Shown here: one piece after another, positions 1,526 to 56,245 of the stretch
Numbering within the stretch: position 1 is the stretch's first letter
Layout of the letters: each line of letters opens with the position of its first letter
Assembly (NCBI RefSeq): GCF_019320115.1
Contig: NC_089597.1
Span: 124,459,485 to 124,523,484 of the forward strand
Length of the DNA: 64,000 bases
Origin: Miscanthus floridulus
Lineage: Eukaryota > Streptophyta > Magnoliopsida > Poales > Poaceae
Reading direction: 5' to 3'
Made by a program: the position numbers and the translations under genes
Notes under the pieces: model-generated
Database searches by the model: none
Told to the model about the DNA's origin: nothing
What the model saw: only the letters and a program-made list of their open reading frames with translations

Positions 1526-4133
1526 TCAGCTTAGCTCCAAGAAGCGCCGGGCCATGGGATGCTTCGCCCTGGACAGCTCTGACGGCGCGAGCACCTCCAC
1601 GATCTCGCCGGCAACGAGGAGGCACACCAGGTCCGCGATGCGCTGGATCTGCTTCACGCTGTGGGAGACGATCACCGTGGTGAGCCCCCTCGCCTTCTTC
1701 AGCCGCACAACGGTGTCCTCGATGTTTTGTGTGGATATAGGGTCCAGTGCGCTCGTCGGCTCGTCCAACAGGAGAACCTGCATGCAACCAGTAACAGAGG
1801 TGATGATCGTAGCAGCAGGATGGTGAGGCGGCGCCATGGAGGATGGCAACGAAATGTAGATGTGTGAGTGAGTGCGTGTGCACCTCAGGGTCGTTGGCGA
1901 GGGTGCGTGCCAAGGCGACGCGCTGTGCCTGGCCGACGGACAGCTCGTTGGCAGGCTTGGAGGACAGGGCAGGGTCCAGGTCGGCCAGCCTCAGCAGGCT
2001 CTGCACCTCGTCTTCACTGAGTTTCTTGCCGCTCAGCTGTGGCCCGTAGCGCACGTTGTATGCCACAGTCCCTGGCATAGCACGTGCAGAAAACGTAGTA
2101 AGAATCAGAGCAACTCATTTCTTTGGCGTAAAAGCACTTCCTATGTTGCCCCGCTTTGCGCCATTTCTTCCTTACGGTTATCCGGAAATTTTTGCGGGAC
2201 GTTTTTTTTTTTGGTGAGGCATGTGAGAGTGATAAAACTTAATCCACGTATGTTGGAGTATGTTGGGTGGAATTTAAATTAAATTTCATCTCAACCTACT
2301 CCAACACACATGGATTAAGGTTGATACATGTGCATCGAGAAAAGCCTAACTTATGTGAAGAACAGTTCAAATGACATTAGCAGGTGGCGCCATTGCGCAA
2401 GAGTATGTTTTCCTGTGAAGTCCTTATCAAATTGCTCCGATTCTAGAGTTGACAAAATGCTTAGTGTACTACTCATTATGACAAATGACGGTAAAGCCCA
2501 ACTAAATGTCAAAATGGGCATCAAGCCTTGCTTGTCAACATAGTTTGCAACAATTTTAGTATCTTCTCCCTCCGTTCCAAATTTGTAAGCTGTTTTGGCT
2601 TTTTTTAGTATAATGGTTTTTACTATGTGTCTGTTCCTCTCTGCACCGCTCTGCTCTTTCGAGAAATTCATTATGGGAATTCTCGGGAGTCTTAATTAAA
2701 TAGTAAGCGTAGAAGCTTATATTCAAAGCTACGTAACATACTACGTCAAAGCCACATCACTCCTGAATTATGCAAGTATGTTTTACCCTGTCAAAACCGT
2801 CCTTTAGCTAACGATGCCAAACCTAGAAATCTGGGGTACGACTTGGTTTGTACCACTCGGAGGATGATAAAATCAGGTTATTTGTCCAATTTACAAACTA
2901 CAACTTGCATTGTGATGTCATATGGGTTCTCACTTCTCAGTACACTTGACATGATGAAAGCTCGTTGAAAAATATAAGCGGAACGAATAGGATTTCTTGC
3001 TTCGAAGATGGCAATGGCGGACAATTTAGTTTTTTCTTCATCTTTGACTATTGACACCTAAAAAACTATAATTGGATTGACTACACGTCTACACAAGATC
3101 CATATCATTAAGTTTATTGATAGTACATTTTCATAGTACGTAACCATTTTCGTTTAAATAATATAGCTTGACATTTGACAAAGATTAAGAAAAGGTAAAC
3201 TTAAGACAAAATTTGACGGACTTGAATTTAGTCTTAGAGAAAGCATGAGCCGTGAGCTCTAGCCTCTGAGCGCATGATCCCAATAAGGGCTAATTTGGAA
3301 ACTCAAATCTCCTTGGGATACCTGACTTTTTTCAAGGTGAGAAATTCATGTGGAAAAATAATTTGAATAGTTATTTTTTTGCGAGGAATTTGAATAATTA
3401 TTTAGTTCTTCGTGGAGGGGTTTTCATCCATGGGTGTACTGCACATTTTTTTCCCCAATTTCATTCATGAAAAGATGCTCTCAAGTCATCGGTTGCGGTA
3501 GCTCTTGCACAATTAATCATAAGCAGACAAGGTCCACGAGTTCGTGCACTTCGTCTTGGACTTGGTTGCAGACGAGGCGGTTTGGCAGAGAAAGAACAAG
3601 AGTCCGTACGTCTAGACTCTAGCTTAGCGTGTACTGGCACAGGAACAGGAGCACGCGTACGTACCTTCGAACATGGCGGGTTGCTGGAAAAGCGTGCCGA
3701 CCTTGCGGCGGAGCGCGCGGACGTCGAGGCCGCAGACGTCGGCGCCGTCGAGGAACACGGCGCCGGGCGCGGGCTCCCAGAGGCGGTTGAGCGCGCGGAG
3801 CAGCGTGGACTTGCCGCTGCCGCTGGGCCCGATGACGCCCATGACGACCCCGCGCGGCACGTCCAGGTGGACGCCCCGGAGGATCTCCTCGCCGGTCGAC
3901 GCCGCACGCTTCCTCAGCCCCCGCACCCGTATCTTGGGCGGCGCGCTACCGCCGTCGCCGGCGAGGTAACTGTCCGAGTCCGCCACATCGAGCAGGAGCT
4001 CCCTAGCTTCGTCGTCTTCTTGTTCGTCGAACACGCGAGCCGCCCTCCCTGCGCTGTCATCGTCGCTGCAGATGGTAAGCTCGACGTGCTGGTTCGGTTT
4101 GGGTGGTTGCTGACCTGAAGCTGATGAGGCCAT
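1526..4133 (-). CDS. STAR1: STAR1-like ABC transporter ATPase subunit, copy A
   Basis: This is a half-transporter ATP-binding subunit. By homology it pairs with a STAR2/ALS3 membrane subunit at an internal or vesicle membrane, in the complex linked to aluminium tolerance. Three exons read in frame across canonical splice sites: 4133-3665 (donor GTACGT), 2071-1884 (donor GTGCAC) and 1777-1526 (TGA stop). The product is 302 aa. Residues 1-65 are an acidic low-complexity leader. Walker A (GPSGSGKS) is at 102-109, the Q-loop Gln at about 150, the signature LSVGQ at 200-204, Walker B (VLLLDEP) at 220-226 and the H-loop His at 258. All catalytic motifs are present and there are no membrane segments, as expected for a separate NBD. 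Intron 1 is about 1.6 kb. The start codon sits in the same context as copy B. A LINE lies about 0.4 kb upstream. Membrane-subunit copies 1 and 2 lie divergently beyond the inserted elements. Confidence 0.9.
2072..3664 (-). other. Intron 1 of ATPase copy A
   Basis: This 1.6-kb intron is AT-rich and contains no further exon. Around 2560-2640 it has a Stowaway-like fragment (ctccctccgttccaaattt). It shares scattered similarity with intron 1 of copy B, for example acatactacgtcaaagccac near 2737 and 29753, which shows that A and B descend from one duplicated gene. Confidence 0.75.
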
Positions 4134-4547
4134 TGGATGGAGTGGAGATTTCAGAGGAAAGAGACAGAGTGAAGAAGAAATAAAATGAGCTAATGTTAGC
4201 CGGCGAGGCGGCTGCCGGCCGGACTTGGGGATGAAGTACAGGGGAAGGTGCGTTGGCGATAGCCAGAATACAAATAGAGTAGTTCACTCGATAGATCTCC
4301 ACGACTCCTTCTCCTCTTATCTCACTCCGACTTGGGCCTCTCATTACATGACACGCAGGCCCATTCCGGCCCGGACAACTTCACGTTGCGTGCTCTCTTC
4401 CTCTTAGGGCCTTGGAGCTGCCGATGGATGACAGCTAATGTGCAGTTGCTTTGGTGCTGCCCCCGTGCTCTTTATCAGGATTGTTTGTGCTCGACTGGAA
4501 TTGATTACTGAAAGACCAGGGATATTTTGCCCAGCTTTGCTGGTGCA

Positions 4548-16659: not shown

Positions 16660-16944
16660 ATGGAGCACGCGAGGGCGTTGCTGGAGCAGATGGCGCCGCC
16701 GGACCTGGGGGAGCCAGGCTTCTGGCGAGACGTCCTGGTGGGCATGCTCAAGACGGCCACTGCCACCGCCGTGGTCGCCCTGGCCGTCATGCTCAGCTTC
16801 ACGCAGCGCCTGGGGATCGAGGCCGAGATGCTCTACGCCGTCGCGTGCTCCTTCCTCCAGCTCTCCCTGGTCGGATTCGTCCTCCACTTCATCTTTGTCC
16901 AGAAGAACGCCACACCATGGATCCTCCTCGTCTACCTCTTCATG
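16660..16944 (+). pseudogene. STAR2/ALS3-like membrane subunit, copy 1 (exon 1 only)
   Basis: Ninety-five codons starting MEHARALLEQMAPPDLGEPG match exon 1 of copies 2, 3 and 4 and cover about the first three membrane segments of the UPF0014/FetB-type subunit. After the last codon (ATG) the expected donor GT reads GC (GCACGT), as in copy 2. The intron match to copy 2 continues only to about 16990. Then unrelated LTR-like DNA begins, and exons 2 and 3 are absent before copy 2 starts. It is a truncated tandem duplicate of copy 2. Its upstream region is also split by the 6.6-kb insertion. Read-through would give a short three-helix protein of about 147 aa, with no evidence of function. Confidence 0.85.
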
Positions 16945-18621: not shown

Positions 18622-19807
18622 ATGGAGCACGCGAGGGCGTTACTGGAGCAGATGGCGCCGCCGGACCTGGGGGAGCCAGGCTTCTGGCGAGACTTCCTGG
18701 TGGGCATGCTCAAGCCGGCCGCTGCCACCGCCGTGGTCGCCCTGGCAGTCATGCTCAGCTTCACGCAGCGCCTGGGGATCGAGGCTGAGATGCTCTACGC
18801 CGTCGCGCGCTCCTTCCTCCAGCTCTCCCTGGTCGGATTCGTCCTCCACTTCATCTTTGACCAGAAGAACGCCACACCATGGATCCTCACCTACGTCTTC
18901 ATGGCACGTAACGCACCCTCTGTTCACCATCTATATGTAGTTGCATTGATGCGTTCTTGATTTTGTTCCCTCGATTTTGTAACCGAATGATCAATCATCA
19001 TCATGCACTCTCTGTTCATCATCATCATCACCTACCTCTGACTAACTGAATTTTGTAACGAACGATATAGGTGACGGTCGCCAGCTACACGGCGGGCCAG
19101 CGCGCAAAGCAGGTCCCCCATGGAAAGTGCATCGCCTTCGTGTCCATCCTCGTCGGCACCGTGATCACCATCGCACTGCTCCTCGTGCTCGACGTCTTCC
19201 CGTTTACCCCGAGGTACATCATCCCCGCGGCCGGCATGATGGTCAGCAACGCTATGACCGTCACTGGAGTCACAATGAAGAAGCTCCGCGACGACGTCAA
19301 GATCCAGAAGAGCCTGGTCAGCTCGAACCCTGTGGTAGCCTGGCGACGTGCTGCTTATGTCTTTTCCTTGCCTAATTCCTGCCTAATCTGTATGATCATC
19401 GATCGTGTCACTTTGCAATTGCAAATAAAATAATGTTTACAAATCTTGTTTATTTTCTCTTTTCTGCAGGTGGAGACAGCACTTGCTCTAGGTGCGACGC
19501 CACGCGATGCGACGCTCCAGCAGATGAGGAGGTCGTTGGGCATCGCGTTGTCCCCGGCCATCGACAACGCCAAGACCCAGGGGTTTATCATGGCGGGTGA
19601 GTCGCCGCTGCAGGCAGTCCAGCAGCAAATTATCATTGATTGCAATAACATGCCCATTTGGTGACACGAGGTCCAAATTAAATAGTCCTCAAGAACATGA
19701 TCACGGCTGCCTCCACCGTCAGCGGCATCTGCTTGTCGTACCTCTGCTGGCCAGCCTTCTTCACCAAGGCCTTCCAGCTTAAAGAAGAAGTCTTCTGGGA
19801 TGACTAG
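18622..19807 (+). pseudogene. STAR2/ALS3-like membrane subunit, copy 2 (disrupted)
   Basis: Three exons can be traced: 18622-18903, 19071-19316 and 19470-19807. Exons 1 and 2 encode a good UPF0014/FetB-like N-terminal two thirds. Intron 1 would have to use a GC donor (ATG|GCACGT) with the normal AG acceptor at 19069-19070. Relative to copies 3 and 4, exon 3 lacks 10 codons covering the conserved LPGAMTG segment. It also carries a 53-bp insertion at 19631-19683 that shifts the frame and brings a TGA at 19662-19664. Beyond the insertion the original frame resumes to TAG at 19805-19807. The protein would lose its last helices. Loss of function is inferred from these lesions. Confidence 0.88.
19631..19683 (+). 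other. 53-bp templated insertion in exon 3 of copy 2
   Basis: The inserted bases match two adjacent pieces of DNA about 0.6 kb downstream, in swapped order. The part ending gattgcaataa matches 20265-20283, and the part catgcccatttggtgacacg onward matches 20236-20266. AAAT flanks both sides. This looks like filler DNA copied during double-strand-break repair rather than a transposon. Confidence 0.75.
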
Positions 19808-33678: not shown

Positions 33679-33884
33679 TAATGTATGAATACACGTGAAG
33701 GGGCCCATTAGCTCTCTAGGCTTAGGACGGCTGCATCCATTGCTCTGGTATGTTTTAATGGGCGGGAGGCCCGATCCATTCCTCGGGTCTGGCTTAACGG
33801 GTGAGAGGTCTGATCCAACGGTCGATAATGCATGTTGCGGGGATCTGACGGCTAGTGAGTTTGCAGGCGACGTGGCCCTATCCG

Positions 33885-38500: not shown

Positions 38501-40441
38501 GGCCCCGATGTCGAGCCGTTGCGCTGGCCTCGCCTGCCCTGCGCCAGCCTCAACTATCCCCACTCTGGCCTGCCTCAGCCTCGGTCGCTATCATCCTCGG
38601 CCTGCCAGTTGGGTGAGAAGAGAGATGAGCAAAGTTTGTGTATGGGAGAAGAAAGGGAAGAAGTGGGGCTGAGTGAGGGAGGAGAGATACGAAGAGCTGG
38701 CAATGTTTTAGTCAGACCTAACAATTAGCCCTAGTCCATCCAAACAAGACCTTAACTTGTTTTGGTCTAGTGCGAAGCACAATGCTGAGAGCCTTAGTTT
38801 GGTTTTAGTAAAACTTGTTTTGGTCTAGTGCGAAGCACAATGCTGAGAGCCTTAGTTTGGTTTTAGTAATTGAGTGACAATTAGTGGATTGATGCTTTCA
38901 TTGGAGATGATTGAACTAGATCGACATGAATGAGTTGAGCAAGGCTAAGAGGTGGTAGAGATGATCAAGACAATAGTGCATATGCTCAATATGAAGAGAA
39001 GATATGGATGGAGATGAAAATAAGCTTGATGAAGGCAAAGGAATATGCATAGAGATTTTGTTTTCGTCGTCCAAGGTGCAGTAGAGTGCACGGTCCAGTT
39101 TAAGATATATAGCATACTATTAAGAGGGGAATTCTAAAGCATTGTCTAGTGCTAGTAGGTGATGACTTTACTTTGCCTTTGCATTAGGTCTAGTGATGTG
39201 GCGAAAAAGCAAGTGAAAATGTTTTGAAAATGCTAGCTTAATTCTTAAAGAAATTGTATTCGTTGGGGCACATTTGAAGTTAGGACACTTTTAAAAAAGA
39301 TTTGAGAGAAGTTGGTGGTGTAGTGTTTTTACTTCTGAGCTTGCCGGTGGGCACCAGAGTGATGCACAGAAAGTTACTTCAGAAGTTCCATGGAAAGCAA
39401 GCGCAGTCACCAGAGCTCGCCAGTGAGGTCACCGGAAAGATTACTAGAGCTTTGTTAGAGGCGGCTGAAGGCTGGGAACGCTGCACCATGCCTCAGCACT
39501 TAGGGCCTGTTTGGTAGGAATTATATTCCAGCTTCACAGAGTTGTTTTTAGCTTCTCCTACCAAACAGGTTCTTTCAAAACAGTTTTTTTCAGCTCCTGA
39601 AAAAACTAGCCTCTCCCAAATTTTCTCTCTGTTAACTTATTTGAGAAGCTGTTTTACCAAACGTTTATGAAAATAGATTTAGCTCTACCTGTAAAGCCGC
39701 TTTTGGAACCAAAACCAACAAAAGCCGATTCACTAGTGAAGTTAAACAGTACCGAACAGGCCCTTAAACTCATACGGGAATAGTAGAAATGTAGAATGGT
39801 GGGAAAAAACACTTTATATTTCAGTTTGTTTTCACTATCGGACTTTGCACCGTTTTTTTTATGACCGTCGTAGATAGACGACGCGAGCGTGCAGTCACAA
39901 CTCGCAGTCTTTGGAGAGAAGCAGATGGAGGGCGACAAGTGTCTGTTAGAAAGAAGAAAGAAAGCGCACCATACGACTGGGATCTAGCAGACCAGACTGA
40001 TCGACCGAAACCAAACCACCTCAAACGACCGCATCTTCCGAAAGAAATACTAACTTTTGTATGATCATTGTAACCTTGCAATTGCAGATACGCTATGTCA
40101 CATACATTTCTGTCTTCTGTTTTCTACAGGTTGAGACGGCACTTGCTCTGGGTGCTACTCCACGTCAGTCGACACTCCAGCAGATAAGAACGTCGCAGGA
40201 GATCGCCTTGTCTCCCGGCATCGACAACGCCAAGACCCAGGGCGTGATCAACCTGCCGGGCGCCATGACAGGGCTCATCATGGCGGGCGCGTCGCCGCTC
40301 GAGGCCATCCAGGTGCAGATCGTCCTCAAGAACATGCTCATGGCCGCCTCCACCGTCAGCAGCATCGTCTCGTCCTTCCTCTGCTGGCCAGCCTTCTTCA
40401 CCAAGACCTTTCAGCTCAAAGAGGAGGTCTTTGCTGACTAG
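35557..40441 (+). CDS. STAR2: STAR2/ALS3-like membrane subunit, copy 3 (intact)
   Basis: This is the integral membrane half of the STAR1/STAR2-type ABC transporter (UPF0014, bacterial FetB relative). Exons are 35557-35862, 35990-36235 and 40130-40441 (TAG), all phase 0 with canonical GT-AG sites. The product is 287 aa, close to rice STAR2 as I recall it. Hydrophobic segments appear in order: AVVALAVML, SFVQLLLIGFVLHFIF and PWILFTYLFM in exon 1; IAFVSILVG..ILLLLF and YIIPISGMVIGNAMTV in exon 2; and STVSSIVSSFLCWPAFF in exon 3. Family motifs YTAGKRAKQ, VETALALGATPRQ and LPGAMTGLIMAG are complete. Intron 2 is 3.9 kb and full of repeats. The start follows the pattern of all copies (MxxA..LLEQ). 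It lies divergently from ATPase B and is the best candidate for a working partner. Confidence 0.92.
36588..37350. mobile_element. Interspersed repeat in intron 2 of copy 3
   Basis: Left part: units such as taacatcaatatgaaataattgc and gaaacacttgaaacat. Right part: G-rich ggggtgggggag runs and a (GA)n tract at 37104-37128. This is the same architecture, inverted, as 7500-8345. Present also in copy 4 (47753-48515), so it predates the duplication. The (GA)n tract differs in length between the two copies. Confidence 0.55.
37740..38756. mobile_element. Probable non-autonomous DNA element, about 1 kb
   Basis: The left end gggcccatttggctcgcatg and the right end ccatccaaacaagacc are imperfect inverted repeats of the GGxCxxxTTTGG type common in grass Harbinger elements. 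The interior is GC-rich with open frames on both strands but no recognisable domain. The target duplication is not clean. The same block is in copy 4 at 48905-49921. Confidence 0.35.
38754..38869. repeat. 58-bp tandem repeat, two units
   Basis: aacttgttttggtctagtgc recurs exactly 58 bases later, giving two identical adjacent units inside intron 2. The same doublet is in copy 4 at 49919-50034. Confidence 0.9.
39503..39763. mobile_element. Tourist-like MITE, TTA target duplication (intron 2 of copy 3)
   Basis: Inverted ends GGGCCTGTTTGGTA and TACCGAACAGGCCC, flanked by TTA at 39500-39502 and 39764-39766. 261 bp. The copy 4 counterpart is at 50668-50928. Confidence 0.88.
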
Positions 40442-40746
40442 CTAGCGTTCCCAATAATTACTTGCTCTGTTTCAAACTATAGGTCGGTTCAGCTTTGTAC
40501 CAAAATTCTCTGTTTTCCAACTAAGTTCTCAAGAAAATGTACTAACGTTTACACTTTCAAATAAATGCGCTGTCAAGGCATTATGAAGAATTTGCTGAAA
40601 TTAATTTGATGGAGTACACAATGGTTCATTTGTCTATAAGCTTTTTCAAAGTTACAAGTTTGACTTTTTCATTAGCATCTGTGACACTAAACTAAATAAG
40701 TACGCTATATGAATACTTATTTCATAAATTTAGTATTTTGTTAAAC

Positions 40747-42854: not shown

Positions 42855-43290
42855 CTTATTATTGATCATGGTTTACTGTCATAAATATTAGTGTTTTTCT
42901 ATAGATTTGATCAAACTTAAAATAGTTTGACTTAAAACAAGTTGTTTTACCTAACTTAAAATAGTTTTTTAGACCTAGAAGGAAACTAAAATTTTGGATC
43001 TTTTATATAAATATGAAAATACTACTAGTATTGCTCGTCGCTAGTATATATACAGATATATACAAAACGTTACTAATAACTGAATGTAAAAGTAATAGTG
43101 CAGAGTGCAGAGCCGCGGGGTGAGAGGAAGTCCAACAATTGCTGACCGGCAGTGTCGAAGCGTCTCGCGTCGTGGCACGGAGACGAGTCGCTGTTGGATG
43201 CCCCAGCCTGCGTATAGCGTATGGGCTGATATATACTGAACAGTAGTAATGTATGAATACACGAGAAGGGGCCCATTAGCTCTCTAGGCT

Positions 43291-43411
43291 CAGCCTGTTC
43301 GGGAGACCGTAAATGATCGTGGATTATTTACTGCTGACTGGTTTGGTGTGAGAGAAAAACACTGTTCCTGACTTGAAATTTACAATCGTTTACGAGCAAG
43401 CGAACAGGCTG
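43291..43411. mobile_element. MITE with CAGCCTGTTCG ends, unit 2 only
   Basis: 121 bp with inverted ends CAGCCTGTTCG and CGAACAGGCTG. Unit 1 lacks it (ctctaggcttaggacggctg), so it inserted after the duplication. The ends suggest a hAT-like element, but an exact target duplication is not clear. Confidence 0.75.
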
Positions 43412-45057
43412 TCGGCTGCATCCATTGCTCTGGAATGTTTTAATGGGCGGGAGGCCCGATCCATTGCTCGGGTCTGGCTTAACGGGTGAGAGGTCTGATC
43501 CAACGGTTGATAATGCATGTTGCGGGGATCTGATGGCTAGCGGGTTTGCAAGCGACGTGGCCCTATCCGTTAGCCCGCTTTTGGTGCACGAATCGTATAT
43601 AGAGATCCGATGGGATCATAATTCTAGTTTTTTTAGCAAACATAATTCTAGTTTTTTTTATCATATAATTCTAGTTTTTTAGCAAACATAATTCTAGTAC
43701 TATATAGGTCAGAATCTCAGAATTGAACAAAAATGTGTGTCAGCGCATCTTCATTGGGCTGGACCAGGCCGTTGGGTATGAAATTTCGATCGGCCTTTTG
43801 GACGACTCGGCCCACTAGCCCGGACTGCTTAGCGCCTTAGCCCCGGCAAAGCCTTAGCGCCGGAGGGGCGCCGCCGGTCGCTCCTTCCCGCCGCCGCCAC
43901 CGCCCTCCTCATCTCGTCCAAGCACAACGCCGCCATGCCCTCCCGCTGCTGGTCCAGACTCCAGAGCCCTTACTCCTCCCGAGCGAGCACCCAACTCACC
44001 CCTCGATCGCTGTCTGTCCTGTTTGTGTTTGGACTTCGGAATGCTGCTTCTTTGGCTGCTTCCGTTCCATGGCGGAAGAAATCTCAGCCTTCCTCGCCAG
44101 ACGTGTCGTTAGTTGGATTTGCATCGGTCTTGGTCAGTTCTTATCTTATCTCTTCGGCCATGCGGGTGGAGCTAAGCAGCCCAGGTCCTGCATGCTGTCT
44201 CCGTCGGGGTCTTATCTCTTTGGCAATTCTGAGACCATCGAGAAGAAATAGTGCAGAGCCGCAGGGTGAGAGGAAGTCCAACAATTGCTGACCGGCAGTG
44301 TCGAAGCGTCTCGCGTCGTCGCACGGAGACGAGTCGCTGCTGGATGCCCCAGCCTGCGTATAGCGTATGGGCCATGGGGCTGATATATACTGAATAGTAG
44401 GGCTCCATCGACGGAAACCTTTACGAAGAAGACGGTGGAAGGACTTGAATAGAATATTGTTTCTTTTTTATTTTAGATTCTTTCGTTTGCAATTTGGGCA
44501 TACATTATGCTGAGTTTTAATATAATTACCTCTTCTTTTAGAAAAAGTTATCAAGAGGTCCCTCACACTCAGCTGCAATGCAATCGCTCCATATTAGTCA
44601 AGTACGCCTCCCGTATTATTTTGAATTTTTGTCTATATGGTAGGACGCGGTACGCACCGGCCCCATTCACTAGCTTGCAAGTGGTAACGTATGTGCCTTA
44701 GTAAACTGCCGGCATATTCCTTAGGCCCATACACATCCCGCAATGGCCACTGGTGACACGGTTAGTTGGGCCATCAGCACTAGTGCCATCTATGCCGGTA
44801 GATATATGGCACGGGTGTATGTGTGTATCTGCAGCACGCAGTGGGTGCATGGTAATTGATTTAAGTGGCGACCTATTTTTGGATCGCTGAGTGCGGAGCA
44901 TACGTTCATCACCCAATCTTGTCTTTGTTGTATGCATAGGTGGTGAAAATATGAAGTAGCTAGTGCTGGCTGACAACCCTCGCACAATATTGCCGCGAAA
45001 ACGATAGGAACGTAGGAGGTCCTTGGCTGTGGACTGTAGTAGCTGAAGCCTGAAGAT

Positions 45058-48000
45058 ATGATGGAGCTCGCGACGGCGTTGCTGGAGCAGACGACTCTGG
45101 CGCCGCCGCCGCGGCAGCCGGACCTGGGGGAGCCAGGCTTCTGGCGGGACTTCCTGGTGGGCATGGTCAAGCCGGCCGCGTCCACCGCCGTGGTCGCCCT
45201 CGCCGTCATGCTCAGCTTCGCGCAGCGCCTGGGCATCGAGGGCGAGACGCTCTACGCCGTCGCGCGCTCCTTCGTGCAGCTCCTCCTCATCGGCTTCGTC
45301 CTCCACTTCATCTTCGTCCAGAAGAACGCCACACCTTGGATCCTCTTCACATACCTCTTCATGGTACGTAACGGCTAACGTAGTTGATGTGTTCTTGGTT
45401 TCGTCCATGGATCAGGAAAGTTTCATCCCTGATAAGATGCATCATCTGATGACTAATCCAGTTTCATAACGAACAACATGACACACACAGGTGACAGTGG
45501 CCAGCTACACGGCGGGCAAGCGCGCGAAGCAGGTCCCCCGCGGGAAGCACATCGCCTTCGTGTCCATCCTCGTCGGCACGGGGACCACCATGATCCTGCT
45601 CCTCCTGTTCAAAGTCTTCCCGTTCACCCCGCAATACACCATCCCCATCTCCGGCATGGTAATCGGCAAAGCCATGACCGTCACCGGAGTCGCCATGAAG
45701 CAGCTCCAGCAGGACATCAAGACTCATAAGAATCTGGTCAGCTCCGAACCCCCTCAACAGTTTGGCATGGCACTAGTTGCTGCATGTTTCGCTGCTTGTT
45801 TCTTCGCTATCCGAAACCGGCACTTTACCGAGTGCCGGAGTCTTTGCCGAGTATAGTTTATAGGGCACTCGGCAAAAACGGTCTTTGCCGAGTGCCAAAT
45901 AAAATACACTCGTCAAAAAAAAACACTCGACAAAGATGGCTTTGCCGAGTGTTTTTTTTTCGGCACTCGGCAAAGATGTATTTTGCCGAGTGCCATTTTT
46001 CGGCAAAAACGGTCTTTGCCGAGTGCCAAATAAAATACACTCGGCAAAAAAAAAACACTCGACAAAGATGGCTTTGCCGAGTTTTTTTTTCGGCACTCGG
46101 CAAAGATGTATTTTGCCAAGTGCCATTTTTCGGCACTCGGCAAAATGCGTCTTTGCCGAGTGCCTTTTTTCTGGCACTCGGTAAAGATGTATTTTGCCAA
46201 GTGCCATTTTTTGGCACTCGGCAAAATGCGTCTTTGCCGAGTGCCTTTTTTGTGGCACTCGGCAAAGATGTATTTTGCCGAGTGCCATTTTTTGGCACTC
46301 GGCAAAATGCGACTTTGCCGAGTGCCTTTTTTCTGGCACTCGGCAAAGAGACATTTTGCTGTGCATTTTTTTTGGCCCTCGGCAAATTATTTTTTCAAAG
46401 CAATTTTTGAGGCCCTAAATGAATTCAAATGAAAAACTTTTCAACTACAAAGTTGTATAACTTCTCAAGATCTACAAAGTTTATCTTGGTCATTTCTTCA
46501 TTTGACAAAGCGACAATAACGTTGTTCATAAAATCTATATCTCTCTCATATCTCTCATATTAGTTTCATGAAAGTAGAAGATAGATATATAAGATTTGTG
46601 AACAATGTTACTACCACTATGTTGGATGAACAAATGACCAAAATAAACTTTGTAGATCCTAAGAAGTTATGAAATTTTGTAGTTGGCAACATTTTGATTT
46701 GAAATCATCTTGTCATCCAAAAACGACGTTTGAATTTGAAAATTTTAAAATTTGAATTTTTCAAAAGACCTCGGATGGAAAAACTTCCTAAATGAAAATT
46801 ATAGATCTCCAAAAGTTATGAAACTATATAGTTGACAACTTTTTGATTTGAAATCATCTTATCATGCAAAACTACGTTTGAATCTCCCAAATTTAAAATT
46901 CGAATTTTTAAACGACCTCGGATGGAAAAACTTCCTAAATGAAAATTGTAGATCTCGAAAAGTTATAAAACTTTATAGTTGACCACTTTTTGATTTGAAT
47001 TCGTTTAGGGCCTCAAACAAGCAATTTACTCTCGATTTAGTATAATATATGAGGATAGATAACGGAATCTAAACACAAGTGACAGTGTAGAGCAGTGGTA
47101 GAGCAGCAGACACGCAAGCGAGAGTCATGAGTTCGAATCCCGCCGGCCGCGTTAGCCGTGAAATTTGCGCAAAAAAATGCAGCGACTTCGATGGAGACGG
47201 GCGGGCACTGGCCGGTGGCGGCCTCCCCCGAAAAAAAAATTGCTATTATTTTGGGGGTTTTTCGCATTTTCATTTTGCCGAGTGTAAATCTTTGCCGAGT
47301 GCTTTTTCGGCACTCGGCAAAGGCTTTGCCGAGTGTCCGAAAAAAAGCACTCGGCAAAGGCTTCTTTGCCGATTAATTTTTTGCCGAGTGCCCTTTGCCG
47401 AGTGCGGCACTCGGCAAAGTGCCGGTTTCCAGTAGTGCTTTCCCTTAATTATCGCCCCCATCGTATCCATTGGGTACGTTTTGGTAGGAATAGAAGTACC
47501 AGCCCCAATTAAAAAACATGAAAATTTCAAGCTAGAAATTATATTCACACATGAATAGTCTAAACGCTAAACGGTAAACAGTCGGTCACTCGCCGTTTAG
47601 CCATTATTCGGTCTAAATGGCCAATTAAACGGGCAAAACGGCCGTTTAAACGGGCTAAACGTCTAATTAAATAGAAACGGTGTACCATTGTGTAGCGTTT
47701 ACACGGTGTGTAAACAGCTAAACGACCGTTTAGGCGAACAGTGGCAACACCCCCCGATCTACTTTTGCAACATCAATATGAAATAATTGCAACATACATT
47801 TGAAACGCATGAAACACTTGAAACATATATATGCAACACTGGGGAGGGGAAGGCTGGGCCGGTCAATTTCGGTCGTCGGGGTCGGAGATCGGCCGCGAGC
47901 GGCTACGCGTGCAACGCGGCCAGTACCGGGCTTGGCTCGGCGATGACGGTGGCGGATGGGGGGGCGAGGAGCGCCATGGCCGCCGGGGTGGGGGAGCTCG

Positions 48001-51000
48001 GTCGCTGGGGTGAGAGAGGGCGCCGCCGGGGGTGGGGAGGGCGTCGCGCCAGGGTGGGGGAGAGCCGCCCACTCCCCCTGCAACACCGTCACACCACTTC
48101 CATGGATCTCGCCAGCGTGGGGGAGAGGGCCACCGGATCTGCGGTATTGGGGCTCCCGGTGGGTGAGGACGCCGGGGTGGGGGGAGGGGCGCCGCCGGGG
48201 TGGGGGAAGGAGACGTTGGGATGGGGGACGAGGACGCCGAGGTGGGAGAGGGCGCGCGCCGGGGTGGGCAAGCGAGAGAGAGAGAGAGAGCAAAGCAGCA
48301 TGGAAGCACGAGAGAGATGAGCTCGTTGGGTAGGCGGCGCGTGCGGAGCGAAGTGGAGCAAGGCGAGGTGTCCAGGATTTGATTTGATTGATTTATTTAT
48401 TTAGGTGAGCGGCGCGTGCAGTAGTGAGGTCAAGTTGTGGTGCATGTCACGCCATGCATTCGGAGGGGAGTCCGGCGTCGGACATCCTATTTGTAGCATT
48501 ACCGCTTATAATAAGTGATTCTTTAAAAAAAAAAGAAATCGAGCAAAAGACCATCTTTTCCCTCACTAATTAGGATAGAGGATGTAGTTACTATTTTCTT
48601 AATTAATGTCGGTCGATTTGGATAATCCTAAAGTTTAAAAGAAATATCAATATTTTTGCAAAAAAAATAGAGGAGATGAGGAGAGAGAGGAGGTTGATGA
48701 TCCATAATACATTATATTTTAGTATAAATTTTGAACTGTGGAAGTCTGCATCTCTAAATTATAGAACGGATGGAGTAGTTGTTAGCTCTATGGATCCAAA
48801 TAGAACCTCAATACTAGTTATAACTAGCTCATGACATTAGAGCAACACAACATATAGTCATTTTAAGAAACTGAATGAATGTCACATTATAATCTTAAAC
48901 ATAGGGCCCATTTGGCTCGCATGAGCTAGTAATTAGCAGCTAAAAATTAGCTCTACTCCATCCAAGCAGGTATAAAATGGTGGCCAAATGAGTGGCACAA
49001 CACTAGCACAAATAGCCACTACTCGTTGAGACAATATGCCTTATTCATGTTGTGTCGTATATGTTGACACGTCGTGCCGACTCTCAGTCCAGGCACGACA
49101 CTGTGGCCCCTTAGTTGTGTCGTGCTGGCTAAACGAGCATGTCGGACAGCGAGCCCATGCCATCTAACAAGGGCTAAAAGTGCTACATATATTGACAAAA
49201 AAAGTCTTTCCTACCCTCCCAACAACCTCCCCCTCTCTCTCCCGTTGTCGTTCGAGCTCATCATGCTTTTGTGGCTGTTGTAGCATCGTCGTGTGGCTGA
49301 GGATGGCGCCTCCATGGCTACCGAGCCCACCATCATGTCTACCGCCAAGCCTGCCATGACCTTCATTACAATCGTCGCCATGGCCCACCTCATCGACTCG
49401 CAGTGTCGTGACACCCAAAACTGTCGCACTACCACTAGCATGGGAGGAGGCCGAAAGATGGATCATGCCCATCGATGAGTGAGCTCTGCATAGCATGGTG
49501 GGCTCCATGGCTGCTCGAGCGAGCTCCCCATCCTAGCCCGATAGGATACATCTAGTCGGCCACTACTGTGCCGATGGAATCTGCCCCAACCCACAGAATC
49601 GACTTGCCTATACCAACCTTGATTTGTTGTCCCTAGAGTTAGTTTGTCACGCCGACCACGATTATGGCCCCGATGTCGAGCCGCTGCGCTGGCCTCGCCT
49701 GCCCTGCGCCAGCCTCAACTATCCCCACTCTGGCCTGCCTCAGCCTCGGTCGCTATCATCCTCGGCCTGCCAGTTGGGTGAGAAGAGAGATGAGCAAAGT
49801 TTGTGTATGGGAGAAGAAAGGGAAGAAGTGGGGCTGAGTGAGGGAGGAGAGATACGAAGAGCTGGTAATGTTTTAGTCAGACCTAACAATTAGCCCTAGT
49901 CCATCCAAACAAGACCTTAACTTGTTTTGGTCTAGTGCGAAGCACAATGCTGAGAGCCTTAGTTTGGTTTTAGTAAAACTTGTTTTGGTCTAGTGCGAAG
50001 CACAATGCTGAGAGCCTTAGTTTGGTTTTAGTAATTGAGTGACAATTAGTGGATTGATGCTTTCATTGGAGATGATTGAACTAGATCGACATGAATGAGT
50101 TGAGCAAGGCTAAGAGGTGGTAGAGATGATCAAGACAATAGTGCATATGCTCAATATGAAGAGAAGATATGGATGGAGATGAAAATAAGCTTGATGAAGG
50201 CAAAGGAATATGCATAGAGATTTTGTTTTCGTCGTCCAAGGTGCAGTAGAGTGCACGGTCCAGTTTAAGATATATAGCATACTATTAAGAGGGGAATTCT
50301 AAAGCATTGTCTAGTGCTAGTAGGTGATGACTTTACTTTGCCTTTGCATTAGGTCTAGTGATGTGGCGAAAAAGCAAGTGAAAATGTTTTGAAAATGCTA
50401 GCTTAATTCTTAAAGAAATTGTATTCGTTGGGGCACATTTGAAGTTAGGACACTTTTAAAAAAGATTTGAGAGAAGTTGGTGGTGTAGTGTTTTTACTTC
50501 TGAGCTTGCCGGTGGGCACCAGAGTGATGCACAGAAAGTTACTTCAGAAGTTCCATGGAAAGCAAGCGCAGTCACCAGAGCTCGCCAGTGAGGTCACCGG
50601 AAAGATTACTAGAGCTTTGTTAGAGGCGGCTGAAGGCTGGGAACGCTGCACCATGCCTCAGCACTTAGGGCCTGTTTGGTAGGAATTATATTCCAGCTTC
50701 ACAGAGTTGTTTTTAGCTTCTCCTACCAAACAGGTTCTTTCAAAACAGTTTTTTTCAGCTCCTGAAAAAACTAGCCTCTCCCAAATTTTCTCTCTGTTAA
50801 CTTATTTGAGAAGCTGTTTTACCAAACGTTTATGAAAATAGATTTAGCTCTACCTGTAAAGCCGCTTTTGGAACCAAAACCAACAAAAGCCGATTCACTA
50901 GTGAAGTTAAACAGTACCGAACAGGCCCTTAAACTCATACGGGAATAGTAGAAATGTAGAATGGTGGGAAAAAACACTTTATATTTCAGTTTGTTTTCAC

Positions 51001-51606
51001 TATCGGACTTTGCACCGTTTTTTTTATGACCGTCGTAGATAGACGACGCGAGCGTGCAGTCACAACTCGCAGTCTTTGGAGAGAAGCAGATGGAGGGCGA
51101 CAAGTGTCTGTTAGAAAGAAGAAAGAAAGCGCACCATACGACTGGGATCTAGCAGACCAGACTGATCGACCGAAACCAAACCACCTCAAACGACCGCATC
51201 TTCCGAAAGAAATACTAACTTTTGTATGATCATTGTAACCTTGCAATTGCAGATACGCTATGTCACATACATTTCTGTCTTCTGTTTTCTACAGGTTGAG
51301 ACGGCACTTGCTCTGGGTGCTACTCCACGTCAGGCGACACTCCAGCAGATAAGAACGTCGCAGGAGATCGCCTTGTCTCCCGGCATCGACAACGCCAAGA
51401 CCCAGGGCGTGATCAACCTGCCGGGCGCCATGACAGGGCTCATCATGGCGGGCGCGTCGCCGCTCGAGGCCATCCAGGTGCAGATCGTCCTCAAGAACAT
51501 GCTCATGGCCGCCTCCACCGTCAGCAGCATCGTCTCGTCCTTCCTCTGCTGGCCAGCCTTCTTCACCAAGACCTTTCAGCTCAAAGAGGAGGTCTTTGCT
51601 GACTAG
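45058..51606 (+). CDS. STAR2: STAR2/ALS3-like membrane subunit, copy 4 (intact, diverging)
   Basis: Exons are 45058-45363, 45491-45736 and 51295-51606 (TAG), with the same phases and canonical splice sites as copy 3. The product is 287 aa. It differs from copy 3 by only a few residues: Thr to Ala in LSF(T/A)QRL, Ile to Thr in QY(I/T)IPISG, Asn to Lys in VIG(N/K)AMTV, and Ser to Ala in PRQ(S/A)TLQQ. The Asn to Lys change puts a charge in a predicted membrane segment that keeps Asn in copies 2 (VSNAMTV) and 3, so copy 4 may be altered in function. Intron 2 has grown to 5.6 kb through a CACTA insertion. It converges on ATPase C, with 0.9 kb between the stop codons. Confidence 0.9.
45805..47437. 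mobile_element. Non-autonomous CACTA element in intron 2 of copy 4
   Basis: Unit 1 supplies the empty site (gtttctttccc), which fixes the ends. The target duplication is CTT (45802-45804 and 47438-47440). The right end is canonical (complement CACTACTGGAAACCGG). The left end reads CGCTATCCGAAACCGG, so four terminal bases have changed. Dozens of ctttgccgagtgcc/ggcactcggcaaag motifs form subterminal arrays at both sides (45820-46390 and 47270-47420). There is no transposase, so it must have been moved in trans. Sequence between the arrays includes repeated gacctcggatggaaaaactt segments. Confidence 0.92.
47082..47150 (+). other. tRNA-like remnant inside the CACTA element
   Basis: tagagcagtggtagagcag resembles an A box with D-arm, and gttcgaatccc resembles a B box with T-arm, with about 45 bases between their starts. 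I could not form a convincing acceptor stem or anticodon arm, so it is a decayed tRNA or a captured Pol III promoter piece rather than a working tRNA. Confidence 0.45.
47753..48515. mobile_element. Interspersed repeat in intron 2 of copy 4
   Basis: Counterpart of 36588-37350 in unit 2, with a shorter (GA)n tract near 48275 and small indels. Confidence 0.55.
49919..50034. repeat. 58-bp tandem repeat, unit 2 copy
   Basis: Same two-unit repeat as 38754-38869, carried over by the segmental duplication. Confidence 0.88.
50668..50928. mobile_element. Tourist-like MITE (intron 2 of copy 4)
   Basis: Counterpart of 39503-39763 with the same TTA flanks. Confidence 0.88.
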
Positions 51607-52076
51607 CTAGCGTTCCCAATAATTACTTGCTCTGTTTCAAACTATAGGTCGGTTCAGCTTTGTACCAAAATTCTCTGTTTTCCAACTAAGTTCTCAAGAA
51701 AATGTACTAACGTTTACACTTTCAAATAAATACGCTGTCAAGGCATTATGAAGAATTTGCTGAAACTAGTTTGATGGAGTACACAATGGTTCATTTGTCT
51801 ATAAGCTTTTTCAAAGTTACAAGTTTGACTTTTTCATTAGCATCTGTGACACTAAACTAAATAAGTACGCTATATGAATACTTATTTCATAAATTTAGTA
51901 TTTTGTTAAACCTTATTATACTAACCAGGTGCCTGAGGCGTTGATATATTTTAACTTGGGAAAAATCTAGAAATAATTATATTTTCAGATGAATAGAGAA
52001 TTACTGCCATGTACCTTCTTAACAAAAAAAAAAGAAGCAAAGACGACTAACACTAGAGTTTGGAGATTAGTAAATA

Positions 52077-52491: not shown

Positions 52492-55400
52492 TTAGCTGCT
52501 GAGCTCCAAGAAACGCCTGGCCATCGGATGCTTGGCGTCGGACAGTTCTGACGGCGCGAGCACCTCCACGATCTCGCCGGCGACGACGAGGCACACCAGG
52601 TCGGCGATCCGCTGGATCTGCTTCACACTGTGGGAGACGATCACCGTGGTGAGGCCCCTCGTCTTCTTCAGGCGCACGATGGCCCCCTCGATGTTCTGCG
52701 TCGAGATGGGGTCCAGCGCGCTCGTCGGCTCATCCAGCAGCAGCACCTGCAGCAACCGATCGATTTCAGCAAGCCGGTAATGGTGGAGGACAGTGTCAGG
52801 AAGACGAAGCAAGAGAGCTGACGGTGCACATGCCTCGGGGTCGTTGGCGAGGGTCCGGGCCAAGGCGACGCGCTGCGCCTGCCCGACCGACAGCTCAGAC
52901 GCCGACTTGGAGCACAGAGCAGGGTCTAGATCCGCCAGGCTCAGCAGGTTCTTCACTTCGGCTTCAGTGAGCTTCTTGCCGCGCAACTGTGGCCCGTATC
53001 GTACGTTGTCAGCCACGGTACCTGCCAAAAGCACGCGGCGGAAAAAAACAGATAAATCTGCTTAGTTATTGTCTGATTCACATGTATCCATCTAAATTCA
53101 CGTGTTGAGATGGGTTCGGATGGAATTTAGATTAAATTTCATTTCAATCCACCTAACACATATGGATTGGGATAGATATATGTATTTGGGCATTCATACA
53201 AACCCTTTGAGAGGTAGCTGACTTTGTATTTAACTTCTGGCTCTCTATGTTAAATTTTAGGGGGAATTCAGAAACATTCGACCATTGATTAGCGGACTCT
53301 AATATCGACATCAACAATAACATTCAGAAACATTGGACCTGAGTTGTTCGGCTGATGGTTTCTGCGGCTGATAAGCCGGCTGATGCTGATTTGTTATGAG
53401 AAAAAAGTTAAGGGTTGTGCCTAATCTTGTCGTGACTAATCTTAGACAATGGTTGCCACAAAAAATATGTTAAATAAATTGATTCATACTTGTAGTTAAG
53501 TTTGACAAGAAATAAATATAAGCTTTATCATGTTGTTGATACGTTGTGACACTTTTTTCAAAAAAATAAAATAAATCTATGATGCATACGAGGGTACTAG
53601 AAAAGCAAAGCATGGTGCACCATAATTGTAGCGTTAGAAGAAACAGCTAAAATATGACATGACTAACATGTCCTGGCAATATTAGCATGAACTAAACATG
53701 ACCTAACCACTTGTACCAACTACGCAAATACTGTGAAGCAATCCCTAAAACCATATACAAGTTACCCACCTTTACCATTATGAAAACTAATATGAACTAA
53801 ACATGACCTAACCACTTGTATGCTATTATCTTTTATAATATTAAGAGTTAGAGTGTTTCTTCCCTACATCGGTAGGTTTGTTCCGGGCCATTCTTGTCTC
53901 TCTCAAACAATATTAGATTTTTATGATTATCTAATGGTTTCTATTAACTAAAAGAGCATGTAACAAATACAACAAAGTTCAACACTTACACTTGTAGCTC
54001 GGTCGTTTATGATCAAAAAGGCCAATGTGAATTGCCCGCCATCGCAAGCCGTGCATCATGGAAAATTCATGATCCAAGACTAGGTTTTTGAACTTAGTTT
54101 CTTTGTGGGACGCAAGTGTTGTTGGATCTGGCAGAATGCACAGTTCATGAAGTTATTTTTTGTTTTCTTTTAACTTAAGTCGTTGGGCTACATAGGAACG
54201 GATTGAAGGAAGAGTTTTTTGGGTGGGGTGGAGTGGGTGAACTAAATTTAAGTTATGGGCTTCATTCTACACTTAGACTAGCATTGTTTCAAATATATAT
54301 ACAAATAAATATTTTTGTCAAACAATGATGCACAATTCTAAAAGGACATGTTTATTGAGCTTGAGCATGCTAGATATTTCCTCCATTGCAACAATAAAAA
54401 GTTATCTAACATGACCTCTAGTCGATCTTTATCTAAAATCATCTACCTATACAATACTAAAAAATATAAAGTAACTCGATAAATTTGCATCCATTAGTCA
54501 ACTTCGCCGTTGTTAGAAATAACCTGAAGTAACCCATATGGACCATTATAGAAATGAAATAAAGTAAGTTCCTACATCTACATCTAAATTAGCCACCTCT
54601 GCTAATAACCTAAAATAACTCTCTATATTGTATCCAAATTACTAGCATCTGTTAATTAGAAAAATATGGCAAAGCAAATATATGTCAAGAACACTTGGAG
54701 GTGAGGCAAAGGAGAAAATTACAAACAATGACAGATTGAAAAGTATATAGAATAATTGATAACTAAAGTTTATTACAGCGAGACAAAATAAGAGAGCATC
54801 TATATAATTATTGTGTTAGAATATGAACATAATAGAATTGATACGTGCTCTGAGTTTCGTGTGCATCTAACCGGCGCGTCAAAGGTATGGTGTGTAATGC
54901 AAGGTTGTTACGTGCTCAAAATGGTTATGAAGAACCATTAAGCGACTAGACACGCGGTCCATTTAAATTGGATCAGTTCTTGCTTGTCAATTGAAGTTTG
55001 TGAAGATTTCATTAACTTAATTGTTTTTGCTGGCTCTACTTTAAACAATCGATTGTTTACTAGCACTAATCTTGTTTAATACTACGGCGCATTTTACAGT
55101 TATATAAATTTTCCCTTATATATACATTTGAAAGAGGCAAACCTATCTAGCTACCTTACATCCAGGCAAATACATTAGACCAGATCTTCAGCAATCCTAA
55201 AATATTTCATGCTCTGTCAAAACTACCAGTTGGTTGATAAATTAGTTGTGTACTATCAAAGTAAACAATCTGAATGGCATCCCAACTTAAATTTATCAAT
55301 AGTTCAAGCTTTGTTTAAAGGTTAGCAGTTGCCTTCCAGTTCCAGGTTCGCCATCACGTGCATGATGTGCTCAGGATGGTTATTTCTGCATCTCAGGATG

Positions 55401-56245
55401 TAGAGTAGAGGACAAGCACAATTCGCATTGTATATGTGAAAAAGAAAAATCATGGTGTGCTCATCAGAGTGATGGCACATGCTTTTATCATGAACAGCCC
55501 TGTTGTCTGAGTGGAGAAACAGTGCTTATCACCAGGGACCTTGTTGACCTATGCAACATCTAGAAAGGTCAGCTGGATTGCTTATCACAGTTGGCCACTA
55601 ACTGTCTACTCACTGCCAACTTACATACATGTGCTTAGCAATTAATTAACCTAACCTTCTGTTCTTAGCGCCATCGATGAATCAATTAGATCGAGCATTA
55701 ATAGGGACAGACTGATTTCGAGTTTCCGGCGCAGCAAGGAAAAAAAAACAGCTTTATCGATGTATAGATGGCCGCCGGAGAGTCGGACGTACCGTCGAAC
55801 ATGGCAGGGAGCTGGAAGAGCATGCCGACCTTGCGGCGCAGGGTGAGGACGTCGATGCCGCAGATGTCTGCGCCATCGAGGAGCACAGCGCCGGGCGCGG
55901 GCTCCCACAGGCGGTTGAGAGCGCGGAGCAGCGTGGACTTGCCGCTGCCGCTGGGCCCGATGACGCCCATGACGACCCCGCGCGGCACGTCGAGGTGGAC
56001 GCCCCGGAGGATCTCCTCGCCGGTCGCCTCGGCGCGGCGCTGCAGCCCGCGCACCCGTATCTTGGGCGCCGCTTCCCCGCCGTTGGCCACGCCGTCCACG
56101 TCCAGCAGGTGCTCCCGGAGATCATCTGCGCATGTCGTCGAATCATATCATCACGGACCTGGTAGATGGTAACAATGGCCTGATCCGATCGTACGATCCA
56201 CCAGCTGAGTTTGCTTGGTTGCTCACCTGACGAAGCTGAGCCCAT
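52492..56245 (-). CDS. STAR1: STAR1-like ABC transporter ATPase subunit, copy C
   Basis: Most divergent ATPase copy. Best model: exon 1a 56245-56227 (MGSASS, phase 1), exon 1b 56125-55793, exon 2 53021-52834, exon 3 52746-52492 (TAA). The product is 264 aa, beginning [18 protein letters not shown] and so lacking most of the leader of A and B. Walker A GPSGSGKS is at 63-70, followed by [11 protein letters not shown] (Q-loop Gln kept, next residue Leu instead of Gln), [12 protein letters not shown] and VSH, all present. Two splice oddities: a 101-nt intron lies where A and B have coding leader, and the last intron begins GC (GAG|GCATGT) instead of GT. That intron is 87 nt and open in frame, so retention would insert 29 residues between the signature and Walker B. 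The 2.8-kb second intron contains no further exon. It converges on membrane copy 4. Confidence 0.85.
53022..55792 (-). other. Long intron of ATPase copy C
   Basis: A 2.77-kb AT-rich intron in the same position and phase as intron 1 of copies A (1.6 kb) and B (1.2 kb). It has a short local repeat (aactaaacatgacctaacc near 53690 and 53797). No coding segment or recognisable transposon is seen. Confidence 0.7.

What the first reader, a model, noticed from the sequence alone, without database searches (positions are those of the whole stretch)
1526..56245. Both subunits of a bacterial-type ABC transporter are physically linked and co-amplified in a plant genome
Seen: three ATPase genes with all NBD motifs (A, B, C) and four membrane-subunit copies (1-4) of the STAR2/ALS3 type within 55 kb, in repeated divergent order NBD(-) TMD(+). 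Known: STAR1 and STAR2 form one complex in rice aluminium tolerance, and the bacterial relatives FetA/FetB are operon neighbours; as I recall, the rice and Arabidopsis partners are on different chromosomes. Inference: this grass has a locus where both halves of the transporter are clustered, duplicated together and perhaps co-regulated. It may be a metabolic-cluster-like arrangement for a transport complex and a candidate locus for metal or acid-soil tolerance.
Basis: partly seen in the sequence, partly recalled or inferred. Interest (0 to 1): 0.88.

Follow-up and report, generated by a model that had tools for sequence, protein, structure and literature searches.

The report
Linked STAR1 and STAR2-like transporter genes
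In Miscanthus and several other warm-season grasses, genes for both halves of a plant ABC transporter known from aluminium tolerance sit side by side, an old linkage that Miscanthus later amplified, although the membrane half found here is a fast-changing extra copy whose role is untested.

Summary
The window is Miscanthus floridulus C18:124,459,485-124,523,484. It holds three intact STAR1-type ATPase genes (A, B, C; minus strand) and four STAR2/ALS3-type membrane copies (plus strand). Only copies 3 and 4 are open; copy 1 is a lone first exon and copy 2 a pseudogene.

C groups with main-lineage grass STAR1. A and B belong to an older duplicate lineage (STAR1L). The membrane genes form a separate lineage (STAR2L), not canonical STAR2, which lies on other chromosomes. 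The linkage recurs in Panicum hallii, Digitaria and Dichanthelium, and at chromosome level in Urochloa and Panicum miliaceum. Misjoining of unrelated contigs is therefore very unlikely.

A second, inverted, collinear array lies 2.6 Mb away. There a STAR1-STAR2L-STAR1L unit is tandemly repeated, so both halves were amplified together. Whether this array is a true duplicate or the other haplotype is unresolved.

Co-regulation for aluminium tolerance was not testable here, and published data lean against it. In Brachiaria 2 of 15 STAR/ALS homologues responded to aluminium, and the STAR2 among them matches the unlinked canonical gene. Miscanthus STAR2L evolves fast. My capped literature listings showed no report of the linkage.

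The parts
1526..4133 (-). Gene A, STAR1L-type ATPase, exons 4133-3665, 2071-1884, 1777-1526, 302 aa
   Evidence: Splice model; identical to M. floridulus P0125; STAR1L clade
16660..16944 (+). T1, exon 1 of a STAR2L gene only (fragment)
   Evidence: UPF0014 hit of 39 bits; 93.5% DNA match to T2's 5' part
18622..19807 (+). T2, STAR2L pseudogene: exons 18622-18903, 19071-19316, 19470-19807; deletion at PGAMTG and an insertion of about 50 bp with stops; GC donor after exon 1
28864..31061 (-). Gene B, STAR1L-type ATPase, exons 31061-30584, 29392-29205, 29115-28864, 305 aa
   Evidence: 98% identical to P0121; Pfam ABC_tran
35557..40441 (+). T3, intact STAR2L membrane subunit, exons 35557-35862, 35990-36235, 40130-40441, 287 aa
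   Evidence: UPF0014 219.9 bits; STAR2L clade 100/98
45058..51606 (+). T4, STAR2L copy with an open 287-aa frame, exons 45058-45363, 45491-45736, 51295-51606; Lys at the nearly invariant Asn of the GNAMT stretch
   Evidence: tandem duplicate of the T3 block
45805..47437 (.). CACTA-like element inserted in T4 intron 2, with 3-bp CTT repeats at its edges; absent from T3 (edges read by eye; family name recalled)
52492..56245 (-). Gene C, main-lineage STAR1 ATPase, exons 56245-56227, 56125-55793, 53021-52834, 52746-52492, 264 aa; the last intron has a GC donor, read through in a 293-aa isoform
   Evidence: identical to P0135 and P0163; tree
33287..40746 (+). Duplicated block, copy 1 (T3)
   Evidence: 97-98% DNA identity to 42855-51911 in pieces
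42855..51911 (+). Duplicated block, copy 2 (T4)
   Evidence: junction reading

Best explanation
This is the STAR1 locus of panicoid grasses. Shown: next to a main-lineage STAR1 gene (C) lie genes of a duplicate STAR1 lineage (STAR1L: A, B) and of a separate STAR2 lineage (STAR2L: T1-T4). Shown: Panicum hallii and Digitaria have STAR1, STAR2L and STAR1 or STAR1L tags in the same neighbourhood. Inferred: the linkage arose before Paniceae and Andropogoneae separated, by tandem duplication of STAR1 and arrival of a STAR2 copy. Shown: Miscanthus expanded the array recently, once as a membrane-gene-only tandem copy (T3/T4) and, in a second collinear array, as a joint STAR1-STAR2L-STAR1L unit. Inferred mechanism: each STAR1-type protein is a soluble ATPase that drives STAR2-type membrane subunits, as rice STAR1 and STAR2 do for UDP-glucose. 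C most likely still works with the unlinked canonical STAR2. STAR1L with STAR2L could make a second, partly redundant transporter. In Miscanthus the membrane half is under weakened or altered constraint, so the array is mostly in birth-and-death turnover and is not a tuned operon-like cluster.
For: Tags in a row in P. hallii and Digitaria; a shared 30,853-bp contig in Dichanthelium. 14 of 18 STAR2L rows share a contig length with a STAR1, against 0 of 22 other grass STAR2 rows. STAR2L clade 100/98 and STAR1L clade 98/92. Miscanthus-only origins rejected (p-AU 0.0005 and 0.004). XTH neighbour shared with P. hallii. C-T-B unit repeated in the second array. ATPases conserved at 112 columns: A 2, B 1, C 0 departures. 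T1, T2 and Tx broken; T3 and T4 depart at 14 of 135 columns.
Against: No expression or protein data. Adjacency is shown by tags or a short contig in three genera; elsewhere only by equal contig length. Four STAR2L copies keep open frames and clean T2-T3 Ka/Ks is 0.36, so some constraint remains. Canonical M. floridulus STAR2 P0079 also departs at 8 columns. A and B also evolve faster than P. hallii STAR1L (p 0.02 and 0.04), though not significantly faster than a Urochloa one. The Brachiaria STAR1 that responded to aluminium has a main-lineage top match in P. hallii, but its S. viridis match bears the tag of a STAR1L-clade protein, so which STAR1 responded is unclear. The AU groups were named after trees had been seen.
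Confidence: 0.65

Rival explanations
1. A functional, co-regulated metal or acid-soil tolerance cluster: STAR1L and STAR2L stay linked because both subunits are needed together and induced together.
For: Linkage kept in several panicoid genera. Joint amplification of a STAR1-STAR2L-STAR1L unit in the second array. Reading frames of Urochloa and Dichanthelium STAR2L are well conserved (10 of 11 rows at 0-1 departures). An XTH whose Brachiaria relative rose with aluminium is a near neighbour. GGNVS motif count upstream of C is 59 against 40.4 (sd 5.4) in shuffles.
Against: In Brachiaria 2 of 15 STAR/ALS homologues responded to aluminium, and the STAR2 one matches the unlinked canonical gene 3G099200 in P. 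hallii (PMC7853602). Motif counts for the other six genes lie within 2 sd of shuffles. B-T3 start codons are 4.5 kb apart with repeats between. Two of four membrane copies in the window are broken.
Confidence: 0.2
2. The second array and the window are the two haplotypes of one locus, one of them placed inverted 2.6 Mb away by the assembly; real copy number per haplotype is then about half, and the differences are copy-number variation between alleles.
For: The arrays are inverted and collinear; 37,660 of 64,000 window bases match at 90% or more. Ks about 0.01 for C, 0-0.012 for T3-type and 0.009-0.022 for B-type copies. Published heterozygosity 1.89% and k-mer size 2,462 Mb against 2,684.5 Mb held here (passage of PMC8238680). 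A 100-N gap at 121,886,491 lies where A would follow.
Against: The assemblers report phasing and purge_haplotigs (passage). Gene content differs: P0123 and Tx only in the second array, A and T1 only in the window, as far as fetched.
Confidence: 0.5
3. Miscanthus STAR2L is decaying and without function; the linkage persists by descent alone.
For: T1, T2 and Tx are broken. T3 and T4 depart at 14 of 135 conserved columns. T4 and P0002 have Lys at a nearly invariant Asn. T3 is faster than Paniceae relatives in 5 of 6 relative-rate comparisons, T4 in 6 of 6 and T2 in 5 of 6.
Against: Four open frames remain (T3, T4, and two in the second array). Clean T2-T3 Ka/Ks is 0.36. The conserved-column comparison is tilted: non-Miscanthus STAR2L rows helped to define the columns, Miscanthus ones did not.
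Confidence: 0.25

Closest known systems
Rice STAR1/STAR2 and Arabidopsis AtSTAR1/ALS3 (bacterial-type ABC transporter of aluminium tolerance)
   Same: Same two protein families: soluble ABC ATPase and UPF0014 membrane subunit; C groups with main-lineage grass STAR1
   Different: Rice and Arabidopsis partners are on different chromosomes. Here both families are linked, and the membrane genes are a separate lineage
Panicum hallii 4G029500-4G029600-4G029700 and Digitaria exilis HU200_059339-059342
   Same: STAR1, STAR2L and STAR1L within three or four consecutive tags
   Different: Miscanthus has more copies, pseudogenes and a second array; gene orientation in the other species was not seen
Bacterial fetA-fetB operon (recalled, no call)
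   Same: ATPase and UPF0014-type permease genes are neighbours
   Different: The plant linkage is secondary, since rice and Arabidopsis are unlinked; genes lie on opposite strands and have introns
Plant metabolic gene clusters (recalled, no call)
   Same: Non-homologous genes of one function in one place
   Different: Two subunit families of one transporter only; co-expression not shown

Membership tests
STAR1 (ABCI17-type nucleotide-binding subunit) | ABC ATPase with Walker A, Q-loop, signature, Walker B and H-loop, no membrane domain | tested here: met
   A, B and C carry all five strings; Pfam ABC_tran, no membrane-domain family hit
STAR1 (ABCI17-type nucleotide-binding subunit) | Groups with plant STAR1 proteins | tested here: met
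   C lies with main-lineage grass STAR1; A and B in a sister STAR1L clade, 98/92
STAR1 (ABCI17-type nucleotide-binding subunit) | Works with STAR2 in aluminium tolerance | not testable with these tools
   No expression, interaction or mutant data for these genes
STAR2/ALS3 (UPF0014 membrane subunit) | Full-length UPF0014 domain | tested here: met
   T3: residues 40-274, profile 5-242 of 242, 219.9 bits. T4 differs by 4 residues. Not met by T1 and T2, which are truncated or broken
STAR2/ALS3 (UPF0014 membrane subunit) | Orthologue of canonical STAR2 | tested here: not met
   Separate STAR2L clade 100/98; grouping with Andropogoneae canonical STAR2 rejected, p-AU 0.0005. They are paralogues
STAR2/ALS3 (UPF0014 membrane subunit) | Residues conserved across plant STAR2 | tested here: inconclusive
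   T3 and T4 keep 121 of 135 conserved columns; columns were defined without Miscanthus STAR2L
Co-regulated gene cluster | Physical linkage kept across species | tested here: met
   Panicum hallii, Digitaria, Dichanthelium; contig sharing
Co-regulated gene cluster | Co-expression of the members | not testable with these tools
   No expression data held; published Brachiaria data lean against (PMC7853602)
Bacterial-type operon | Same strand, one transcript | tested here: not met
   ATPase genes on minus, membrane genes on plus strand

The most novel reading that the evidence does not exclude
Panicoid grasses evolved a second, genetically linked bacterial-type ABC transporter (STAR1L with STAR2L) beside STAR1, by bringing a STAR2 duplicate next to a STAR1 duplicate. 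This would be a eukaryotic re-creation of the bacterial ATPase-permease neighbourhood, kept as a co-inherited two-subunit module with its own substrate or tissue, and re-amplified as a unit in Miscanthus.
Probability: 0.3. Interest if true: 0.75.

Novelty: new variant of a known kind. Interest (0 to 1): 0.5.

Why it matters
STAR1 and STAR2 are key genes of aluminium tolerance on acid soils. A linked set of paralogues in forage, millet and bioenergy grasses means that candidate-gene, QTL and expression studies there can confuse copies. It also offers a natural test of whether the subunits of one complex are drawn into linkage again after having been separated.

Tried and rejected
Rejected: misjoined unrelated contigs (same linkage in other genera); a Miscanthus-only origin of the duplicates (groups named after the quick trees had been seen); T1 and T2 as working genes.

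Led nowhere: AlphaFold model of P0002 (mean pLDDT 72.3, pTM 0.59), whose PDB fold search gave 267 matches at E <= 10 and none at E <= 0.001. Sequence search of solved structures with T3: none. GGNVS counts (ART1-type motif, recalled) in 1 kb upstream of seven genes: C 59 against 40.4 sd 5.4 in shuffles, the other six above the mean but within 2 sd; the motif is too loose to weigh. No XTH-like motif inside the window. Pfam on ten other ORFs of the window found only retroelement domains in three. A first Ks of T2-T3 (0.406) used a frame-shifted tail and was replaced (0.324). I did not get a genome-wide list of STAR1 copies.

Rows dropped or chosen by hand; 50 database rows plus T2, T3, T4, from 138 listed STAR2 proteins; P0001, P0016, P0029, P0035, P0042 taken out after the quick tree; 56 database rows plus A, B, C, from 120 listed; P0151, P0172, P0182, P0184, P0185, P0186, P0220 taken out; columns from 128 proteins of 240-310 aa without P0002, P0003, P0043; columns from 107 proteins of 230-345 aa without nine Miscanthus rows. 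Each protein search lists only its best 120.
Full report
WHERE THE WINDOW IS. The genome tool places the window at C18:124,459,485-124,523,484 of a 2,684,536,002-base assembly. C18 is 137,204,425 bases long, the contig length under which Miscanthus floridulus STAR1-like and STAR2-like proteins are listed. Gene A is identical to P0125, and C to P0135 and P0163. The window has no N.

GENES. I built splice models by hand. A, B and C, all minus strand, are complete ATPases of 302, 305 and 264 aa. C has a 19-base first exon, and its last intron has a GC donor. The listed isoforms P0135 (264 aa) and P0163 (293 aa) match the spliced and the read-through form of C. T3 and T4, plus strand, have three exons and open 287-aa frames. 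T3 hits UPF0014 over its whole profile; T4 was not run, but differs from T3 by four residues and no synonymous site. T1 is exon 1 only. T2 lacks about 10 residues around PGAMTG and has an insertion of about 50 bp with stops. So there are three ATPases, two open membrane genes, one pseudogene and one fragment.

ORDER. Along the plus strand: A(-) T1(+) T2(+) B(-) T3(+) T4(+) C(-). B and T3 are divergent with 4,495 bp between start codons; T4 and C are convergent with 885 bp between stop codons. Blocks at 33.3-40.7 kb (T3) and 42.9-51.9 kb (T4) match at 97-98% in the main pieces. T4 alone has a CACTA-like element of about 1.6 kb in intron 2 with 3-bp repeats (edges read by eye).

RELATIVES. The protein database holds many grass proteins. 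In the STAR2 tree (53 rows) T2, T3 and T4 fall in a clade of 21 rows (100/98) with proteins of Panicum, Urochloa, Dichanthelium and Digitaria. Canonical STAR2 (Sorghum 09G024500, M. floridulus P0079) lies outside. Holding the window genes with Andropogoneae canonical STAR2 is rejected (p-AU 0.0005). In the STAR1 tree (59 rows) a STAR1L clade (20 rows, 98/92) holds A, B, PAHAL_4G029700, Digitaria HU200_059339 and, less firmly, Eragrostis EJB05_41140 (p-AU 0.0535 for moving it). C lies among the remaining grass STAR1 proteins, which are not one well-supported clade. One clade of all Miscanthus and Saccharum STAR1 rows in the test is rejected (p-AU 0.004). These groups were named after trees had been seen.

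HOW OLD AND HOW WIDE THE LINKAGE IS. In Panicum hallii the tags 4G029500, 029600 and 029700 are STAR1, STAR2L and STAR1L. In Digitaria exilis HU200_059339, 059340 and 059342 are STAR1L, STAR2L and STAR1. In Dichanthelium STAR2L P0008 and a partial STAR1, P0179, share a 30,853-bp contig. Of 18 STAR2L rows with a contig, 14 share a contig length with a STAR1; of 22 other grass STAR2 rows, none does (misses P0003, P0006, P0021, P0022). In Urochloa and Panicum miliaceum this shows same chromosome only. Table 2 of PMC7853602 gives P. hallii 4G029300 as top match of an XTH gene that rose with aluminium, two tags from 4G029500; in Miscanthus an XTH lies at C18:124,560,264-124,561,133, about 45 kb beyond C. 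The same paper puts the Paniceae-Andropogoneae split at about 24-26 million years (passage). Core Ks is 0.41-0.45 for C against A and B, 0.19 for A-B and 0.32 for T2-T3.

SECOND ARRAY. UPF0014 exons also occur on C18 at 121.79-121.86 Mb, minus strand. From low to high coordinate: C(+), T(-), B(+), C'(+, last two exons), T'(-), B'(+), Tx(-, broken), P0123(+), a T fragment(-), and the T2-type copy of P0043(-). The C-T-B set is tandemly repeated: C-C' 98.7% over 3.4 kb, T-T' about 91-98% in pieces, B-B' 94.1%. The arrays are inverted and collinear; 37,660 of 64,000 window bases match at 90% or more, mean identity 95.6%. They may be alleles: Ks near 0.01, heterozygosity 1.89% and k-mer size 2,462 Mb (passages of PMC8238680), and a 100-N gap at 121,886,491 just where A would follow. 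Against that, the authors report phasing and haplotig purging, and the gene content differs. The nearest XTH has a 99% copy at C18:121,671,663; further XTH genes occur on C18 only on that side, and on C19, the likely homoeologue, so the second array may be the native place. I could not decide.

CONSTRAINT. At 135 columns conserved in at least 95% of 128 STAR2 proteins, Urochloa and Dichanthelium STAR2L depart at 0-1 in 10 of 11 rows (the eleventh, P0091, is truncated), P. hallii at 4 and 6, P. miliaceum at 3, Digitaria at 6, T3 and T4 at 14 each. These other STAR2L rows helped to define the columns and the Miscanthus ones did not, which tilts the comparison. Canonical M. floridulus P0079, which was among them, departs at 8. 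Relative-rate tests find T3 faster than Paniceae relatives in 5 of 6 comparisons, T4 in 6 of 6 and T2 in 5 of 6 at p < 0.05. The ATPases are conserved: A 2, B 1, C 0 departures at 112 columns; A and B are faster than P. hallii 4G029700 (p 0.02, 0.04) but not significantly than Urochloa P0127. A-B Ka/Ks is 0.13 in the core and 0.37 over the whole protein.

FUNCTION. Rice STAR1 and STAR2 together transport UDP-glucose in oocytes (passage of PMC7709911). By family, each STAR1-type protein here can power a STAR2-type subunit (inference). In Brachiaria 15 STAR/ALS homologues were found and two changed with aluminium; their top P. hallii matches are 4G029500 (this locus) and 3G099200 (passages of section 19 and Table 2, PMC7853602). 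Its S. viridis match, 4G259400, is the tag of P0133, which falls in STAR1L in my tree, so whether STAR1 or STAR1L responded is unclear. Either way the responding STAR2 is the unlinked one. The study does not say which of the other 13 are STAR2L.

IN PRINT. Ten searches listed no title or abstract start that reports linked STAR1 and STAR2 genes. Listings were capped, only open-licence papers are held, and I read passages or sections of seven papers (PMC7853602, PMC7067865, PMC7709911, PMC5835670, PMC5106411, PMC10298921, PMC8238680), none in full.

VERDICT. A genuine linkage of both subunit families, conserved in panicoid grasses and not seen reported, with recent array expansion in Miscanthus. 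It is a new arrangement of known genes, not a new kind of system. The functional-cluster reading stays open, with more evidence against it than for it.

Noticed in passing
G000 C18:121773841-121860753 (loci L009-L018, L022): A second, inverted array collinear with the window, with a tandemly repeated STAR1-STAR2L-STAR1L unit; allele or duplicate unresolved.
   Followed up: partly
G000 C18:124560264-124561133 (locus L030): An XTH gene about 45 kb beyond C; the P. hallii XTH two tags from STAR1 is the top match of a Brachiaria XTH that rose with aluminium. STAR1 and a cell-wall enzyme may be old neighbours.
   Followed up: partly
window 52747-52833: Last intron of C has a GC donor; read through it stays open and gives the listed 293-aa isoform with a 29-residue insert before Walker B.
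   Followed up: yes
window 4547-6982 and 23885-24541: Retroelement pieces: zf-RVT at 5759-6604, RVT_3 at 6659-6982 and Retrotrans_gag at 23885-24541; the ORF at 4547-4948 had no Pfam hit.
   Followed up: no
window 15965-16535, minus strand: Frames that read by eye like a glycosyltransferase fragment; 15965-16303 had no Pfam hit.
   Followed up: no
window 45869-46386 and 60471-60977: Tandem arrays built on a CTTTGCCGAGTGCC-type unit; the first lies inside the element in T4 intron 2.
   Followed up: no
P0001 (Dichanthelium, contig of 48,485 bp): A listed 492-aa protein with two STAR2-like stretches in tandem: fused gene or merged model.
   Followed up: no
P0053 (Leersia perrieri): A STAR2 of a rice relative that groups with Miscanthus and Sorghum canonical STAR2 (100/76): contamination, transfer or tree error.
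   Followed up: no
G000 C16:16094182-16881807 and C17:12679264-12715673: Canonical-type STAR2 is itself multicopy: last-exon hits at five places on C16 and two on C17.
   Followed up: no
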